Assembly: GCF_013410665.1 (NCBI RefSeq)
Contig: NZ_JACCFM010000001.1
Span: 2,666,001-2,730,000, forward strand
Direction of reading: 5' to 3'
Length of the DNA stretch: 64,000 bases
Source: Leifsonia psychrotolerans
GTDB lineage: Bacteria > Actinomycetota > Actinomycetes > Actinomycetales > Microbacteriaceae
Shown: positions 25,476 to 29,584 of the stretch, piece after piece
Layout: each line of letters opens with the position of its first letter
Numbering within the stretch: the first letter of the stretch is position 1
Notes under the pieces: model-generated
The model's database searches: none
The model's input: only the letters and a program-made list of their open reading frames with translations
Told to the model about the DNA's origin: nothing
Position numbers and translations under genes: made by a program

Positions 25476-25640
25476 TCAGGCGCCGCGACGTCCTGAAATC
25501 GCTCGCAGCAGGAACATGATCACGGCGATTACCGCCAATACAATTCCGACCCAGAGCAGAAATTGCAGGGATTGAACGAAACCACCGGTGATCAGCAGCA
25601 CAACGGCGACAACAACGATGATAATAAGTAGCAGATTCAC
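25476..25640 (-). CDS. Small 54-residue membrane protein
   Basis: A short gene that begins with GTG at 25640 after GAAGAGGGG, encoding 54 residues. Two membrane helices (LLLIIIVVVAVVLLI and FLLWVGIVLAVIAVIMFLL) are joined by a short TGGFVQSLQ turn; a positively charged tail RAISGRRGA follows. Similar very short two-helix proteins are common in actinobacteria with no assigned function. The good ribosome binding site, hydrophobic composition and following terminator all support it as real. Confidence 0.75.
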   Translation of the reverse strand: MNLLLIIIVVVAVVLLITGGFVQSLQFLLWVGIVLAVIAVIMFLLRAISGRRGA

Positions 25641-25769: not shown

Positions 25770-26654
25770 TCACGGGGCAGCCGGAGGAGTGTCTTCGTTC
25801 ATCGGATCTGACGCCCAGAGGTGCATCAGCGCGTAGGCGCGATACGGCGCCCACCGCCCCGACACTGCCGTCGCCTCTTTCGCGCTGACACCGCCGAGTG
25901 CTCGGCGCAGCACCAGGTCTGTCGGAGTGAACGCATCGTGGTCGGCCAGCACACGAACCGCCAGATAATCGGCTGTCCACGGCCCAATCCCGGGCACATC
26001 GAGCAGCCTGCGACGGATGTCGTCACGGTCGCCATCCGCAGAAATCTCAAGACCCTCGGCACACGCCACCGCGAGTGCGTGCACCGTTCGCGCACGGGCG
26101 CCCGTGATACGGATGCGGCGTTGCAGGTCCTCGGCATCGACCTCGGCCAGTTGCTGTGGCGTAGGAAACAGGAGCAGCCCGCCCGGCCCGGGTGTTCCCC
26201 ATTCAGCGGCAAGCCGACCACCGAACGTGCGGCAGGCTGCAAGCGAGACCTGCTGGCCCAGCACCGTCATCACCGCGGCCTCGAAGCCGTTCGGGTAGCC
26301 GATGATGCGCAATCCGGGCCGGGCGCCGATGAGCGGGCCGATGACGGCATCGCCGCCGAGCACATCCCGCACTGCGCTGAGATCGGTGTCGAAGTCGAGC
26401 CAACGGCGCGCGATCACGGTGAGCTCGTCGGCCTGAACCGGCGCACCGGCGTCGACGCGCACGCGGACGGCATCCGTGGCCAGTGTGAGCGTCACCGCGA
26501 CCGGCCCAACCGAGGTGGGCAGCACGCGCTGATGGGTCTGGGCCGCCGCGTCGGCGACTTCGGCGCCCGGAATGGCATGCAGCGCAAACGAGGCCAGCAT
26601 GGCGCGCACCTCGAGCGACTCAGGGGCGGCGAGATCGAGCACGAGGCGGCTCAC
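25770..26654 (-). CDS. alkA: DNA-3-methyladenine glycosylase II (AlkA-type)
   Basis: A base-excision glycosylase (294 residues) that removes 3-methyl and other alkylated purines. The N-terminal half is the AlkA beta domain (LDLAAPESLEVRAMLASFAL ...) and the C-terminal half is the HhH-GPD domain: LLDVPGIGPWTADYLAVRVL with the catalytic Asp in FTPTDLVLRRALG. It has no Ada N-terminal domain. Translation begins with a GTG whose last bases overlap the tag stop codon (GTGA), so an upstream in-frame extension antisense to tag is rejected. It is the last gene of the sigma/repair operon. Confidence 0.9.
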   Translation of the reverse strand: MSRLVLDLAAPESLEVRAMLASFALHAIPGAEVADAAAQTHQRVLPTSVGPVAVTLTLATDAVRVRVDAGAPVQADELTVIARRWLDFDTDLSAVRDVLGGDAVIGPLIGARPGLRIIGYPNGFEAAVMTVLGQQVSLAACRTFGGRLAAEWGTPGPGGLLLFPTPQQLAEVDAEDLQRRIRITGARARTVHALAVACAEGLEISADGDRDDIRRRLLDVPGIGPWTADYLAVRVLADHDAFTPTDLVLRRALGGVSAKEATAVSGRWAPYRAYALMHLWASDPMNEDTPPAAP

Positions 26655-27313
26655 GGTGCGGTCGTTGCCGACCAGACACCCGAACTGCCTCGCCGGTGGC
26701 TGCCGAGCAGATGCGTGTCGACGATGCCAATGGCCTCCATCAGCGCAAACATCGTGGTGGGACCGACGAAGGCGAAGCCGCGTGCGCGGAGCGCTTTCGA
26801 CAGGGCGACGGATTCCACGGATTGCGTGGGTACCTCCGCAGACGTGTGCGGGTGCGGGGTTTCGGCCGGTTGGAATGACCAGACGAAGTCGACCAGACCG
26901 CCGTCGGCCCGCAAGGCGATCGTGGCCCGCGCGTTGGTGATTGTTGCATTCACCTTGAGCCGATTGCGCACGATTCTCGCATCGCCCAGCAGCCGCTCGA
27001 CATCGCGTTCGGTGTAGCCAGCCACAACGTCGGGATCGAAGCCGTCGAACGCCGATCGAAATGCCGGCCGCTTCTTCAAGATCGTCGCCCACGACAGTCC
27101 GGCCTGAAAAGCCTCGAGGCTGATGCGTTCGAACAGCCCGTGCTCGTCACGCACCGGCACTCCCCACTCGGTGTCGTAGTAGTCGCGCATCAGCGGGTCG
27201 GTCGCCGCCCAGGTCGGCCGGGCGAGGCCGTCGTCGCCGCGCACCGTTCCAGCGGGGACAACGGATACCGCACTCGCCGCGGATGCCGCGGCATCCGTTT
27301 TCGGGATGGTCAT
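26651..27313 (-). CDS. tag: DNA-3-methyladenine glycosylase I
   Basis: A Tag-family glycosylase (220 residues). The core DYYDTEWGVPVRDEHGLFER, the catalytic-site LEAFQAGLSWATILKKR and ALSKALRARGFAFVGPTTMF align well with E. coli Tag. The zinc ligands of the E. coli enzyme are mostly absent: the first Cys is replaced in RPTWAATDP, His17 by Tyr in DYYD, and the last Cys by Ser in THLLGSHRRG; only His175 remains. Start: ATG at 27313 sharing one base with the alkB stop, or GTG three bases earlier. It overlaps alkA by four bases. Confidence 0.9.
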   Translation of the reverse strand: MTIPKTDAAASAASAVSVVPAGTVRGDDGLARPTWAATDPLMRDYYDTEWGVPVRDEHGLFERISLEAFQAGLSWATILKKRPAFRSAFDGFDPDVVAGYTERDVERLLGDARIVRNRLKVNATITNARATIALRADGGLVDFVWSFQPAETPHPHTSAEVPTQSVESVALSKALRARGFAFVGPTTMFALMEAIGIVDTHLLGSHRRGSSGVWSATTAP

Positions 27314-27975
27314 CACTCGGAGAGCCCTGTCACGCGCATGGTGATATTGATTCTGCCCGAAGCGAGCCCCGTGGCGCGACTGCCGGTGCCGGGGTAGATC
27401 TTGGGCACACCGTGGAAGGCGAAGCGGCTCGGCCCGCCGAACACGAAGAGGTCACCGGAGACGAGATCGAGGTCGGTGTACGGCTGGCCACGATCGGCCG
27501 TATTGCCGAACCTGAATTTGGCGGTGTCGCCGATGCTCAGTGAGACGACCGGCGCGTCGGACTTCTCGTCTTTGTCTTGGTGCATGCCCATCTTCGCGGT
27601 GTCGCCGTAGTAGTTCACGAGGGCGGCATCCGGTCGATAGGCCGCAGCGGACGTCTGATCGTCGAAGGCCGCGGCCACCGCACGCTGACCGAGCGTGACC
27701 AACCAGTCGGGAAAGTCGAGCACGCGCACGCCGTTGACGTCGCCGGCCTCGCGGGTGTAACGGTAGGGCTGCCAATGCCAGCCCAGGCACACCGTGCGCA
27801 CCGACATATCGTGACCGCCCGGGAGTCGGGCAGCCCGGATCGGCACCGGTCCGCGCGCCCAGCACATGAACTGGGCGACGATATCTTTCTGCTCATGGAG
27901 GTCGAGCCAGCCCGGAACGTGCACGGCACCGGGCGCCACTTCGCGACGCTCCGCCGGGAACAGGGCGTCGGTCAT
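27313..27975 (-). CDS. alkB: Alpha-ketoglutarate-dependent DNA repair dioxygenase AlkB
   Basis: AlkB (220 residues) oxidatively demethylates N1-methyladenine and N3-methylcytosine using Fe(II) and 2-oxoglutarate. The HxD iron motif is in MGMHQDKDE, the distal iron histidine in RFAFHGVPKI and the 2-oxoglutarate-binding arginines in RINITMR. NYYGDTAKMGMH is the family signature. It starts in the ogt stop codon (ATGA) and its stop overlaps the tag start, so the three proteins are tightly coupled. Confidence 0.95.
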   Translation of the reverse strand: MTDALFPAERREVAPGAVHVPGWLDLHEQKDIVAQFMCWARGPVPIRAARLPGGHDMSVRTVCLGWHWQPYRYTREAGDVNGVRVLDFPDWLVTLGQRAVAAAFDDQTSAAAYRPDAALVNYYGDTAKMGMHQDKDEKSDAPVVSLSIGDTAKFRFGNTADRGQPYTDLDLVSGDLFVFGGPSRFAFHGVPKIYPGTGSRATGLASGRINITMRVTGLSE

Positions 27976-28775
27976 CGTGGCTCCGGTCGAACGGCGTCGG
28001 CGAAGTCGGAGGTGCCGGACGCAGCGGCGGCGGCAGCGGCGGAGGCAGCGGCGGAGGCAGCGGAAGCAGGGTCGGAGGCGGCGGACGCAGCGTCGGCGAC
28101 CTCGAGAACGGCGTTCGGCGCAGCCCTCACACGGGCAACCCCCGCCGCCTCCAGGCTGAGCAGCAGGTGCTTAGCCTCGGTCCCCCCGAGGTAGCCACCG
28201 TACGAGCCATCGGAGCGCACGACCCGGTGGCAGGGCACAACGAGCGGCAGAGGGTTTGTTGCGCACGCGGTACCGACCGCCCGCATCGCCCGCGGGCTTC
28301 CCGCAGCGAGCGCGACTTGGGCATAACTCTCGGTGCGGCCGTACGCGATATGAGGCAGGTGGGCGAGCACGCTGAGCCGAAACCCCGTCGAGAGTCGGTG
28401 GTCGAGCTCCAGGTCGAAGGCGTGCCGGGCTCCGGCGAAGTACTCGTCGAGTTCGCGGGCTGCGGCATCCAGGCGTCGCGGTGCGTGCAGGATGCGCGGG
28501 CTCACCAGCGCGGCCAGCCGGTCGAGCACCGCATCATGGTTCTCTCGCTCGAAGGCGATCCGCACGAGGCCCTGCTCGGTCGCAGCCAGCAGAAGCAGTC
28601 CGATCGGGGTATCGAGGGTGCGATAGGCGACGTCGAGGTCGCCGCCGGATGCCGCAGCCGCCTCGAGCGCGGCATGCAGTCGGTCGAGGTCTGCGGGATC
28701 CACGTCGCGGGTGGGGGCGAGCAGATCGGTGAGATCGTGCGTGCCACCGAGGTGCGGAGTAGGTGCGGTGGTCAT
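27972..28775 (-). CDS. ogt: Methylated-DNA--protein-cysteine S-methyltransferase with N-terminal extension
   Basis: An O6-alkylguanine-DNA alkyltransferase, 267 residues. The acceptor Cys is C182 in LPLVVPCHRVVRSDGSYGGY; the ribonuclease-like domain precedes it (YRTLDTPIGLLLLAATEQGL). Residues 1-48 form an extra N-terminal helical region (HDLTDLLAPTRDVDPADLDR and LHAALEAAAASGGDLD) that is not part of minimal Ogt. The C-terminus, after residue 215, is an Ala/Ser-rich low-complexity tail encoded by 12-bp-like repeats. It lacks the Ada N-terminal zinc domain. ATGA overlaps join it to the sigma gene before and alkB after. Confidence 0.92.
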   Translation of the reverse strand: MTTAPTPHLGGTHDLTDLLAPTRDVDPADLDRLHAALEAAAASGGDLDVAYRTLDTPIGLLLLAATEQGLVRIAFERENHDAVLDRLAALVSPRILHAPRRLDAAARELDEYFAGARHAFDLELDHRLSTGFRLSVLAHLPHIAYGRTESYAQVALAAGSPRAMRAVGTACATNPLPLVVPCHRVVRSDGSYGGYLGGTEAKHLLLSLEAAGVARVRAAPNAVLEVADAASAASDPASAASAAASAAAAAAASGTSDFADAVRPEPR

Positions 28776-29308
28776 GGGGAGGTTCCCTCCGCTACGGGTG
28801 CGGGTCTAAGTGTGAGTTCGGGGGTTGGTCGCTCGGGCGGGGGTGCGGCGGCGAGCCGCAGCCTGAGGGCCTTGATGCCGTCGGCGGCAGCGCGTCGGGC
28901 CGCATCCGTCGTGCCGCCGAGAATATCGGCGATATCCCGGTGCGGCAGTCCCGTCAGATAGTGATAGGCGACGGCCTGGCGCTGCTTGGGAGGGAGCGCG
29001 GCGAGCGCGGGCCACAGATCCGGGTCGCTTTTTTCGGGCAGGCCGATCGTGGAGATCGACTCCGGCAGCGTCTCGAGCGGGATCGGTGCGCGGCCTCGGG
29101 CTCGAATCAGGTCGATGGCTTTGCGATGGGCGATGGTCACAAGCCAGGCCTCGACGTTCGCCTCGACGTCGAGCGCCGGGTAGGCGCGTAAGGCCGCAAG
29201 AAACGTCTCGGACCAGGCGTCGTCGGCATCACTGGGGCCGACCACGGCGCGACAGACGCGCAGCACAGTAGCCCCGTGCACGGCGACGATCTGTTCGAAC
29301 GGCTTCAT
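28772..29308 (-). CDS. ECF-like sigma-70 family RNA polymerase sigma factor
   Basis: A 178-residue sigma factor. Region 2 covers about residues 12-85 (SDADDAWSETFLAALRAYP and AWLVTIAHRKAIDLIRARGR); region 4 covers about 105-160 (LPPKQRQAVAYHYLTGLPHR and DIADILGGTTDAARRAAADG). No sigma 1.1/1.2 and no C-terminal extension are present, so it is of ECF type. No anti-sigma gene lies in the window next to it. Its stop overlaps the ogt start (ATGA). I start it at the ATG at 29308 because a promoter-like sequence ends seven bases before it. It probably directs transcription of the repair operon, including itself. Confidence 0.85.
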   Translation of the reverse strand: MKPFEQIVAVHGATVLRVCRAVVGPSDADDAWSETFLAALRAYPALDVEANVEAWLVTIAHRKAIDLIRARGRAPIPLETLPESISTIGLPEKSDPDLWPALAALPPKQRQAVAYHYLTGLPHRDIADILGGTTDAARRAAADGIKALRLRLAAAPPPERPTPELTLRPAPVAEGTSP

Positions 29309-29314
29309 AGTCAC

Positions 29315-29342
29315 ATTATGCAGACGTCCGCCGACAGGTAAA
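29315..29342 (-). promoter_or_regulatory. Promoter-like sequence of the sigma/repair operon
   Basis: Read on the minus strand, TTTACC (29342-29337) and CATAAT (29320-29315) are separated by 16 bases. CATAAT matches the -10 consensus at five of six positions. Transcription would start near 29308, the A of the sigma ATG, so the transcript may be leaderless; no Shine-Dalgarno-like sequence is present between. Confidence 0.5.
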
Positions 29343-29356
29343 CGTGAGATCGCCGG

Positions 29357-29497
29357 TCACACGAGGCGCCCCAGGGCCGCGGCGCTCGGTTCTTCGAGGG
29401 CGAGCAGGAACCGTGTGCGGTCGAGCCGGCTGGCGTACCCGACGAGGTCGCCATCGGCGCCAACCGCCCGGTGCCACGGCCGGATCCGCGAAGTCAC
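29357..29497 (-). pseudogene. 5'-truncated MGMT/ATL-family remnant with PWHR motif
   Basis: A 46-codon open stretch on the minus strand (GTG at 29497 to TGA at 29357) encodes RIRPWHRAVGADGDLVGYAS followed by RLDRTRFLLALEEP. This is the DNA-binding C-terminus of the alkylguanine transferase family, with Trp in place of the acceptor Cys as in alkyltransferase-like (ATL) proteins. A TAA stop lies directly upstream in the same frame and no N-terminal domain is present. The stop codon is 48 bases before the sigma ATG, on the same strand. The break coincides with the inverted repeat at 29504-29541. Confidence 0.65.
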
Positions 29498-29503
29498 CCT
29501 TTA

Positions 29504-29541
29504 CGGTCGAGTTTCCGTCGCACGCCGGCGAAACTCGACCG
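29504..29541. repeat. Perfect 12-bp inverted repeat at the break of the MGMT remnant
   Basis: CGGTCGAGTTTC (29504-29515) is matched by GAAACTCGACCG (29530-29541) around a 14-base loop. It occupies the place where the 5' part of the MGMT-like gene should be. Confidence 0.8.
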
Positions 29542-29584
29542 CACGAGGCGAAGTCGGCGAAAGCGGGGCGCCGACAGAGCGAAA

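What the first reader, a model, noticed from the sequence alone, without database searches (positions are those of the whole stretch)
25770..29314. An ECF-type sigma factor heads a translationally coupled ogt-alkB-tag-alkA alkylation repair operon
Directly in the sequence, five genes on the minus strand overlap by 1-4 bases at every junction (ATGA, ATGA, TGATG/GTGA, GTGA), so one transcript carries three alkylation-repair routes: direct transfer (Ogt), oxidative demethylation (AlkB) and base excision (Tag and AlkA). The first gene is an ECF-like sigma factor without an adjacent anti-sigma gene. In classical adaptive responses control runs through methylated Ada, which is absent here. I infer that the sigma factor takes its place. 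I am not certain how often this exact arrangement has been reported in related actinobacteria.
Basis: partly seen in the sequence, partly recalled or inferred. Interest (0 to 1): 0.85.

Follow-up and report, generated by a model that had tools for sequence, protein, structure and literature searches.

The report
Sigma-factor alkylation-repair operon replacing Ada
An actinobacterium carries a small sigma factor coupled to a DNA-methyl-removing enzyme and other repair genes, and comparison of several hundred genomes indicates that this pair takes the place of the classical Ada regulator by switching on repair genes through its own recognisable promoter.

Summary
The five-gene minus-strand operon sigma-ogt-alkB-tag-alkA (25770-29314) is real, with 1-4 base overlaps at every junction; the closed genome has no Ada zinc domain. 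The conserved core is not the five-gene order but the pair sigma + Ogt1 (119 of 120 and 78 of 80 loci), a pair of the kind filed in the literature as ECF122, 'unknown mechanism'. New here: (1) a promoter, CTCAC-N17-CGTC, precedes the sigma gene (or an ogt2 gene before it) in 118 of 121 loci; in the window -35 is 29344-29348, -10 29323-29326. (2) A strict form occurs 51 times in 75 sigma-bearing family genomes and once in 75 sigma-lacking ones; of 11 sites away from the operon 9 sit directly before a second ogt. (3) Sigma and Ada nearly exclude each other: Ada in 6 of 77 sigma-bearing against 152 of 222 sigma-lacking Microbacteriaceae; the five other sampled genomes of the window's genus have Ada and no sigma. 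So the sigma factor very likely replaces Ada as regulator of alkylation repair. What senses damage is unproven; Ogt1, translationally coupled to sigma and with an extra N-terminal helix, is the best candidate (a split Ada). Induction by alkylation could not be tested.

The parts
29320..29350 (-). ECF-type promoter ATCTCACGTTTACCTGTCGGCGGACGTCTGC; -35 CTCAC 29348-29344, 17-nt spacer, -10 CGTC 29326-29323; start codon 8 (GTG) or 14 (ATG) nt further on, so the mRNA is probably leaderless (inference)
   Evidence: conserved upstream of sigma in relatives; the only site of 8 bits or more in the window (31.0 bits); the other 25 own-genome matches of the looser pattern score at most 10.0 bits
28772..29314 (-). 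ECF sigma factor (sigma2 + sigma4), ECF122-like; ATG at 29308, alternative GTG at 29314
   Evidence: PF04542, PF08281; TIGR02937 over cut-off; relatives SigE, SigH by sequence in PDB
27972..28775 (-). ogt1: O6-alkylguanine-DNA alkyltransferase with N-terminal extension
   Evidence: PF01035, PF02870; PCHR Cys182 invariant in 44 of 44 rows; best fold match M. tuberculosis OGT
28644..28697 (-). N-terminal helix of Ogt1 (residues 27-44), ahead of the classical OGT fold; candidate sigma-binding element (inference)
   Evidence: AlphaFold2 helix, block pLDDT 83-92; M. tuberculosis OGT matches start at residue 49, E. coli Ada C-domain at 43; L33, L37, A41 invariant in 44 rows
28230..28232 (-). codon of the methyl-accepting Cys182 (PCHR)
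   Evidence: alignment A2
27313..27975 (-). alkB: oxidative demethylase
   Evidence: PF13532
26651..27316 (-). tag: 3-methyladenine DNA glycosylase I
   Evidence: PF03352; TIGR00624 216.5 bits, under its cut-off of 232.5
25770..26654 (-). alkA: 3-methyladenine DNA glycosylase II
   Evidence: PF06029, PF00730
29390..29557 (-). remnant of a second ogt (ogt2), C-terminal part, with a stop inside; ogt2 genes stand here in many relatives
   Evidence: PF01035 29.2 bits, 1 TAA; reading frames; ogt2 match upstream of sigma in 18 of 120 and 43 of 80 loci

Best explanation
The operon is a self-contained adaptive response to DNA alkylation in which an ECF sigma factor of the ECF122 type does the job of Ada. 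Shown by comparison: the sigma gene is bound to ogt1; a promoter CTCAC-N17-CGTC stands before the sigma operon and before other alkylation-repair genes in genomes with this sigma factor and hardly ever occurs in those without; sigma and Ada replace each other. Inferred: RNA polymerase with this sigma factor transcribes its own operon from 29320-29350 as a leaderless message, giving positive feedback. Inferred with less certainty: Ogt1, made in step with sigma by stop/start overlap, is the switch. It holds the sigma factor inactive (perhaps through its extra N-terminal helix) until its PCHR cysteine takes a methyl group from DNA, or it activates sigma when methylated, so that the couple works as an Ada split over two proteins.
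For: Pairing: 119 of 120 loci and 78 of 80 named loci; stop/start overlap of 4 bases in 159 of 196 pairs. In the exceptional genus g150 the motif stands between sigma and ogt. Specificity: 51 strict sites in 75 of the 77 sigma-bearing genomes (42 with a hit; reversed control 2), 1 in 75 sigma-lacking Ada-bearing ones (control 4). Regulon: 9 of 11 sites away from the operon precede ogt2, with tag or alkA behind in three (named by eye except L217, Pfam); six ogt2 homologues of sigma-lacking genomes have no site (best under 0 bits). Ada: 6 of 77 against 152 of 222, Fisher p 6e-22, kinship not corrected. Ogt1: matched in all 77 sigma-bearing genomes; of 222 others six matched, five of them weaker Ogt types and one (G241) a true Ogt1 whose sigma gene looks decayed and beside which no site is found. 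Precedent: Cada2 is activated by methylation of the PCHR cysteine of its alkyltransferase domain (PMC10957082, sections 8-10 read).
Against: No expression data. Direct contact of sigma and Ogt1 could not be shown: covariation is inconclusive (best inter-protein z 8.8 against up to 6.9 in six shuffles; the most suggestive residue pair fails the tree-aware test) and the fold of a read-through sigma-Ogt chain is of no use (pLDDT 52.7, pTM 0.31). Six genomes have both Ada and sigma. Two loci (L131, L282) have sigma with no ogt behind it. 33 of 75 sigma-bearing genomes have no strict site, though the looser matrix finds one at nearly all operons examined. The nine ogt2 genes were found by the site, so how many ogt2 genes of sigma-bearing genomes lack it was not counted. 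The Ogt1 extension is one helix, far shorter than the about 100 residues of class I anti-sigma domains (PMC7406223, passages). Outside the family the extra sites are less clear: 4 of 9 fetched are repair-linked.
Confidence: 0.75

Rival explanations
1. The sigma factor drives the repair regulon, but Ogt1 is only cargo; sigma is controlled in another way, such as by a DNA-damage activator upstream, proteolysis or an unlinked anti-sigma factor.
For: No contact shown. In g150 and in the window a TGTCRGNG-N8-NANNNT element (PafBC-like; that motif is recalled, not found in the paper searched) lies before sigma. The review lists transcriptional, proteolytic, phosphorylation and conformational control for ECFs without anti-sigma (PMC8999054, section 3 part 1).
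Against: The PafBC-like element is in 4 of 201 loci only. Of the four genes tested none is as constant beside sigma as ogt, and among 299 family genomes Ogt1 is tied to this sigma factor.
Confidence: 0.4
2. The signal is not alkylation: the sigma factor answers a general or growth-phase stress and keeps repair genes at a steady level.
For: No expression data. Some extra sites outside the family precede non-repair genes (an SDR-like enzyme by eye, an EamA transporter by Pfam).
Against: In the family 9 of 11 extra sites precede ogt2; strong exclusion with Ada, which answers alkylation; in the own genome no other pattern match scores above 10.0 bits.
Confidence: 0.2
3. The conserved element is an operator for another regulator on a housekeeping promoter, and the sigma factor acts elsewhere.
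For: No in vitro data; an extended -10-like TGCATAAT lies at 29315-29322 in the window (sequence).
Against: Two blocks with an invariant 17-nt spacer and a CGTC block fit an ECF promoter (CGTC as ECF -10 is recalled); the element tracks the presence of this sigma gene and was not found where sigma looks decayed (L310).
Confidence: 0.07
4. The operon is an ordinary chance cluster of repair genes with an unrelated sigma gene in front.
For: Downstream gene order varies: none of alkB, tag or alkA was matched in the fetched stretch of 72 of 120 loci.
Against: sigma-ogt pairing in 119 of 120 and 78 of 80 loci from Microbacteriaceae to Streptomyces, Rhodococcus and Acidimicrobiia MAGs.
Confidence: 0.02

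Closest known systems
ECF122 sigma factors (as reported in the review PMC8999054)
   Same: ECF sigma factor without a cognate anti-sigma factor, with a 6-O-methylguanine DNA methyltransferase as conserved neighbour; reference protein from the actinobacterium Cellulomonas
   Different: The passages seen give 'unknown mechanism' and no promoter, regulon, Ada exclusion or repair operon; the primary classification paper is not held and may say more. The group's own HMM could not be run here.
Ada (EcAda) adaptive response
   Same: Co-expression of alkyltransferase, AlkB and AlkA under a self-controlled promoter; near-exclusive distribution in the same family
   Different: No Ada zinc domain; the regulator is a sigma factor; the alkyltransferase is a separate polypeptide
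Cada2-type regulators (Kamat et al. 2024, PMC10957082)
   Same: Proposed sensing cysteine is the PCHR cysteine of an alkyltransferase domain; autoregulation; seldom found with EcAda (about 7%, section 8)
   Different: Cada2 joins DNA-binding and alkyltransferase domains in one chain; here the DNA-reading part is a separate sigma factor
ECF sigma / class I anti-sigma pairs
   Same: Two neighbouring, translationally coupled genes under a putatively autoregulated ECF promoter (general features recalled)
   Different: The partner is a repair enzyme with one extra helix, not a membrane or zinc anti-sigma domain

Membership tests
ECF (group IV) sigma factor | sigma2 and sigma4 domains only, about 180 aa | tested here: met
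   PF04542 residues 9-73 and PF08281 101-147 in 178 aa; TIGR02937 59.1 bits over cut-off 42.9
ECF122 | match to the group's HMM | not testable with these tools
   No ECF classification library on hand; primary paper not held
ECF122 | conserved neighbour 6-O-methylguanine DNA methyltransferase, no anti-sigma gene | tested here: met
   definition from PMC8999054
Ada (EcAda) | Ada_Zn_binding domain (PF02805) | tested here: not met
   0 matches in the closed genome
Cada2-like regulator | DNA-binding domain fused to PF01035 in one chain | tested here: not met
   Own-genome PF01035 open frames are 277, 200, 112, 112 and 47 aa; Ogt1 matches only PF02870 and PF01035. The 200-aa one was not scanned with Pfam.
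Ogt/MGMT | PF01035 with PCHR active site and MGMT fold | tested here: met
Class I anti-sigma factor (Ogt1 as one) | about 100-residue anti-sigma domain | tested here: not met
   Extension of about 48 residues with one long helix; size from PMC7406223
Class I anti-sigma factor (Ogt1 as one) | binds and inhibits the cognate sigma | tested here: inconclusive
   covariation and fused-chain fold gave no answer

The most novel reading that the evidence does not exclude
A third kind of adaptive-response regulator: a two-protein 'split Ada' in which a suicide DNA-repair enzyme (Ogt1) is itself the methylation-gated regulator of an ECF sigma factor, so that spending the enzyme on damage frees or activates the sigma factor that makes more of it and of the other alkylation-repair enzymes.
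Probability: 0.4. Interest if true: 0.87.

Novelty: new variant of a known kind. Interest (0 to 1): 0.72.

Why it matters
ECF122 is listed as a sigma group with an unknown mechanism (PMC8999054). The finding gives it a predicted promoter, regulon, signal and a testable switch, and it suggests how actinobacteria that lack Ada could still induce alkylation repair. If Ogt1 is the switch, a stoichiometric repair enzyme would double as a sigma-factor sensor, with no membrane protein or kinase. The exact CTCAC-N17-CGTC promoter could also serve as an orthogonal part for synthetic biology.

Tried and rejected
PafBC promoter: my first reading of TGTCGGCG-N8-CATAAT before sigma as a PafBC (RecA-independent) promoter was dropped; a relaxed form is in 4 of 201 loci (0.4 expected), and the ECF element is the conserved one. 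A paper on PafBC searched for the motif gave no passage, so that motif is recalled.

Sigma-Ogt1 contact: mean-field DCA on 188 of 196 pairs (short or misassigned rows dropped) and a tree-aware test of sigma residue 5 against Ogt residue 34 (crosstab; test) were inconclusive. Larger alignments of sigma-only and Ogt-only rows with a read-through chain looked misaligned; the small one (9 rows) gave a useless model.

Horizontal transfer: nearest rows in the tree are Arthrobacter (70% identity, no starred branch), but the closest Ogt1 in the protein database are up to 81% identical over about three quarters of the query, one of them (77%) named Leifsonia kafniensis; origin left open. 1 of 6 sampled genomes of the window's genus has the pair.

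Literature: nine of ten searches used; 'ECF122' as a word gave one paper. None of the listings pointed to an experiment on a sigma-Ogt pair. The library is partial (most subscription papers and preprints are missing), so this is not proof of absence. Passages only were seen of PMC8103513, PMC4437013 and PMC7406223.

PADLOC: no matches for sigma and Ogt1.
Full report
What is in the sequence. Five minus-strand genes, sigma, ogt, alkB, tag and alkA, fill 25770-29314 and overlap at every junction by 1-4 bases. Pfam confirms each. The genes around them (FmdA_AmdA, AI-2E transporter, SfLAP) are unrelated and none is a recognisable anti-sigma factor. The genome, one contig of 3.82 Mb, has no Ada zinc domain. 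Its five PF01035 places are the operon's Ogt, three other open frames of 200, 112 and 112 aa, and a decayed piece at 29390-29557 directly before the operon.

The conserved unit. I searched the sigma protein in 198 genomes of the order (63 besides the window's own with E up to 2e-23) and 299 of the family (77 with E <= 1e-15, own included). Of these 139 other genomes I fetched 120 loci and 8 more later; the rest were left out without a fixed rule, several because they lie at contig ends. ogt lies behind sigma on the same strand in 119 of the 120; the exception, L131, has 1.6 kb of sequence behind sigma without it. Of the 120, tag was matched in 34, alkA in 15, alkB in 8, and an ogt2 precedes in 18. 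A scan of named genomes kept the best 80 of 379 relatives: 78 are followed by ogt (misses L267, cut by the contig end, and L282). These come from Streptomyces, Rhodococcus, Arthrobacter, Amycolatopsis, Nocardia, Mycobacterium sp., Acidimicrobiia MAGs and others. The order sigma-ogt-alkB-tag with alkA further on occurs in two Arthrobacter loci (L247, L255). In an even draw of the phylum 49 of 296 genomes have a sigma match at E <= 1e-20; 39 of the 49 are weaker than 1e-40, and their neighbours were not looked at. In 159 of 196 pairs the ogt start overlaps the sigma stop by four bases.

The promoter. Upstream of sigma stands CTCAC(A/G), 17 nt, CGT(C/T). Allowing spacers of 14-24 it was found within 130 nt in 92 of 121 sequences (the window included), 91 at once with spacer 17; the last (L126) was read by the script with 14 but also has CGTC at 17 (sequence). 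The background is 0.021 per 130 nt. With a weight matrix of these 92, 26 of the other 29 have a site of 11 bits or more within the fetched upstream stretch, 15 of them before an upstream ogt2; the 95% background maximum over 1500 nt is 0.1 bits, the overall background maximum of 35.9 being a real site inside L078. The three left (one genus, g150) have the site between sigma and ogt, so there the repair gene, not the sigma gene, is the target. Seven further family loci all have ogt and a site (L318-L324, 18-39 bits). In the window the site scores 31.0 bits and nothing else in 64 kb reaches 8. Among 26 looser matches in the own genome (reversed control 23) no other scores above 10.0 bits, so the own regulon may be this one operon; variants outside the pattern were not sought.

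Does the promoter belong to this sigma factor? A strict form gave 51 sites in 75 of the 77 sigma-bearing genomes of the family (42 genomes with a hit; reversed control 2) and 1 in 75 sigma-lacking genomes (control 4; these 75 were the first Ada-bearing, sigma-lacking ones listed, not a random draw). Eleven of the 51 are not at the sigma operon: nine lie directly before a second ogt, in L218 followed by tag and in L219 and L220 by alkA; two (L211, L216) have no repair gene (genes named by eye, L217 by Pfam). One of the nine (L214) appears frameshifted. ogt2 itself is scarce in the sigma-lacking set (6 of 75 at E <= 1e-30), and those six have no site (best under 0 bits); ogt2 genes without a site in sigma-bearing genomes were not counted. 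In 33 of the 80 named genomes, all outside the family, there were 34 sites (control 3). Nine that I judged by coordinates to lie outside the operon were fetched, and a second site inside L271 was noted. Four of the nine are repair-linked: ogt2 (L332), an Oxygenase-NA gene followed by a lone Ada zinc domain (L329), a gene 52% identical to one in the Oxygenase-NA/ogt2 cluster of L271 (L330), and vsr followed by another Ogt1 (L334); the site in L271 precedes an Oxygenase-NA-like gene. The other five are not. A genome whose sigma gene looks decayed (G241, L310) keeps ogt and tag and shows no site in 8 kb.

Ada. Of 77 sigma-bearing family genomes 6 have an Ada zinc domain (one weakly, in a 7% contaminated assembly); of 222 without sigma 152 have it (recounted in 103). 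Fisher's test gives p = 6e-22, not corrected for kinship, and some of the others are reduced genomes with neither. The five other sampled genomes of the window's own genus have Ada and no sigma. Their Ada loci hold an alkA match but no sigma. This is the picture of one regulator replacing another.

The partner. Ogt1 homologues (E <= 1e-35) occur in all 77 sigma-bearing genomes; of six others, five are weaker matches of other Ogt types without sigma or site nearby and one is G241. Ogt1 has about 48 residues ahead of the classical fold (M. tuberculosis OGT matches begin at residue 49), with a helix at 27-44 (block pLDDT 83-92); the fold behind it is that of M. tuberculosis OGT. The PCHR cysteine is invariant in 44 rows. 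Cada2 of Caulobacter shows that methylation of this very cysteine can switch a regulator (PMC10957082, abstract and sections 8-10 read). I therefore take Ogt1 as the likeliest switch, at about 0.4. My attempts to show contact failed.

What is known. A review reports ECF122 as a group without anti-sigma factor whose conserved neighbour is a 6-O-methylguanine methyltransferase, under 'unknown mechanism' (PMC8999054, section 3 part 1 of 2 and the table passage). The original classification is not held and may hold a predicted promoter. The pairing is therefore known. I found in the searched library no report of the regulon, of the exclusion with Ada or of an experiment. The verdict is a new variant of a known kind: an adaptive response run by a sigma factor.

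Noticed in passing
window 29390-29557 (-): Decayed C-terminal piece of a second ogt directly before the promoter; many relatives carry an ogt2 there.
   Followed up: yes
window 27975-28142 (-): Ogt1 of the window has a 56-residue Ala/Ser-rich tail; relatives in the database are mostly 205-207 aa long in all.
   Followed up: no
window 29315-29336 (-): TGTCGGCG-N8-CATAAT, like a PafBC-type element (recalled), overlaps the ECF promoter; a relaxed form was otherwise found only in L078, L081 and L257 (genus g150) before sigma.
   Followed up: partly
window 25476-25640 (-): A 54-residue, strongly hydrophobic frame with a GTG start, downstream of alkA on the same strand; no family search was made.
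   Followed up: no
L071, L078, L081, L238, L257: In this genus (Salinibacterium by the titles of L238 and L257) the ECF promoter lies between sigma and ogt instead of before sigma.
   Followed up: partly
L310 (G241): Sigma gene looks decayed, ogt1 and tag present, no promoter site: a natural loss experiment.
   Followed up: partly
L329, L330, L271: Amycolatopsis: Oxygenase-NA (PF09859), a lone Ada zinc domain and an uncharacterised small protein family under the same promoter.
   Followed up: partly
L334: A Vsr endonuclease gene followed by a second Ogt1, under the promoter, away from the sigma locus of that genome.
   Followed up: no
L172, L179, L180, L181, L182: Sigma homologues whose sigma2 and sigma4 halves match in two pieces with extra sequence between them.
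   Followed up: no
L131, L282: Sigma homologues without ogt behind them.
   Followed up: no
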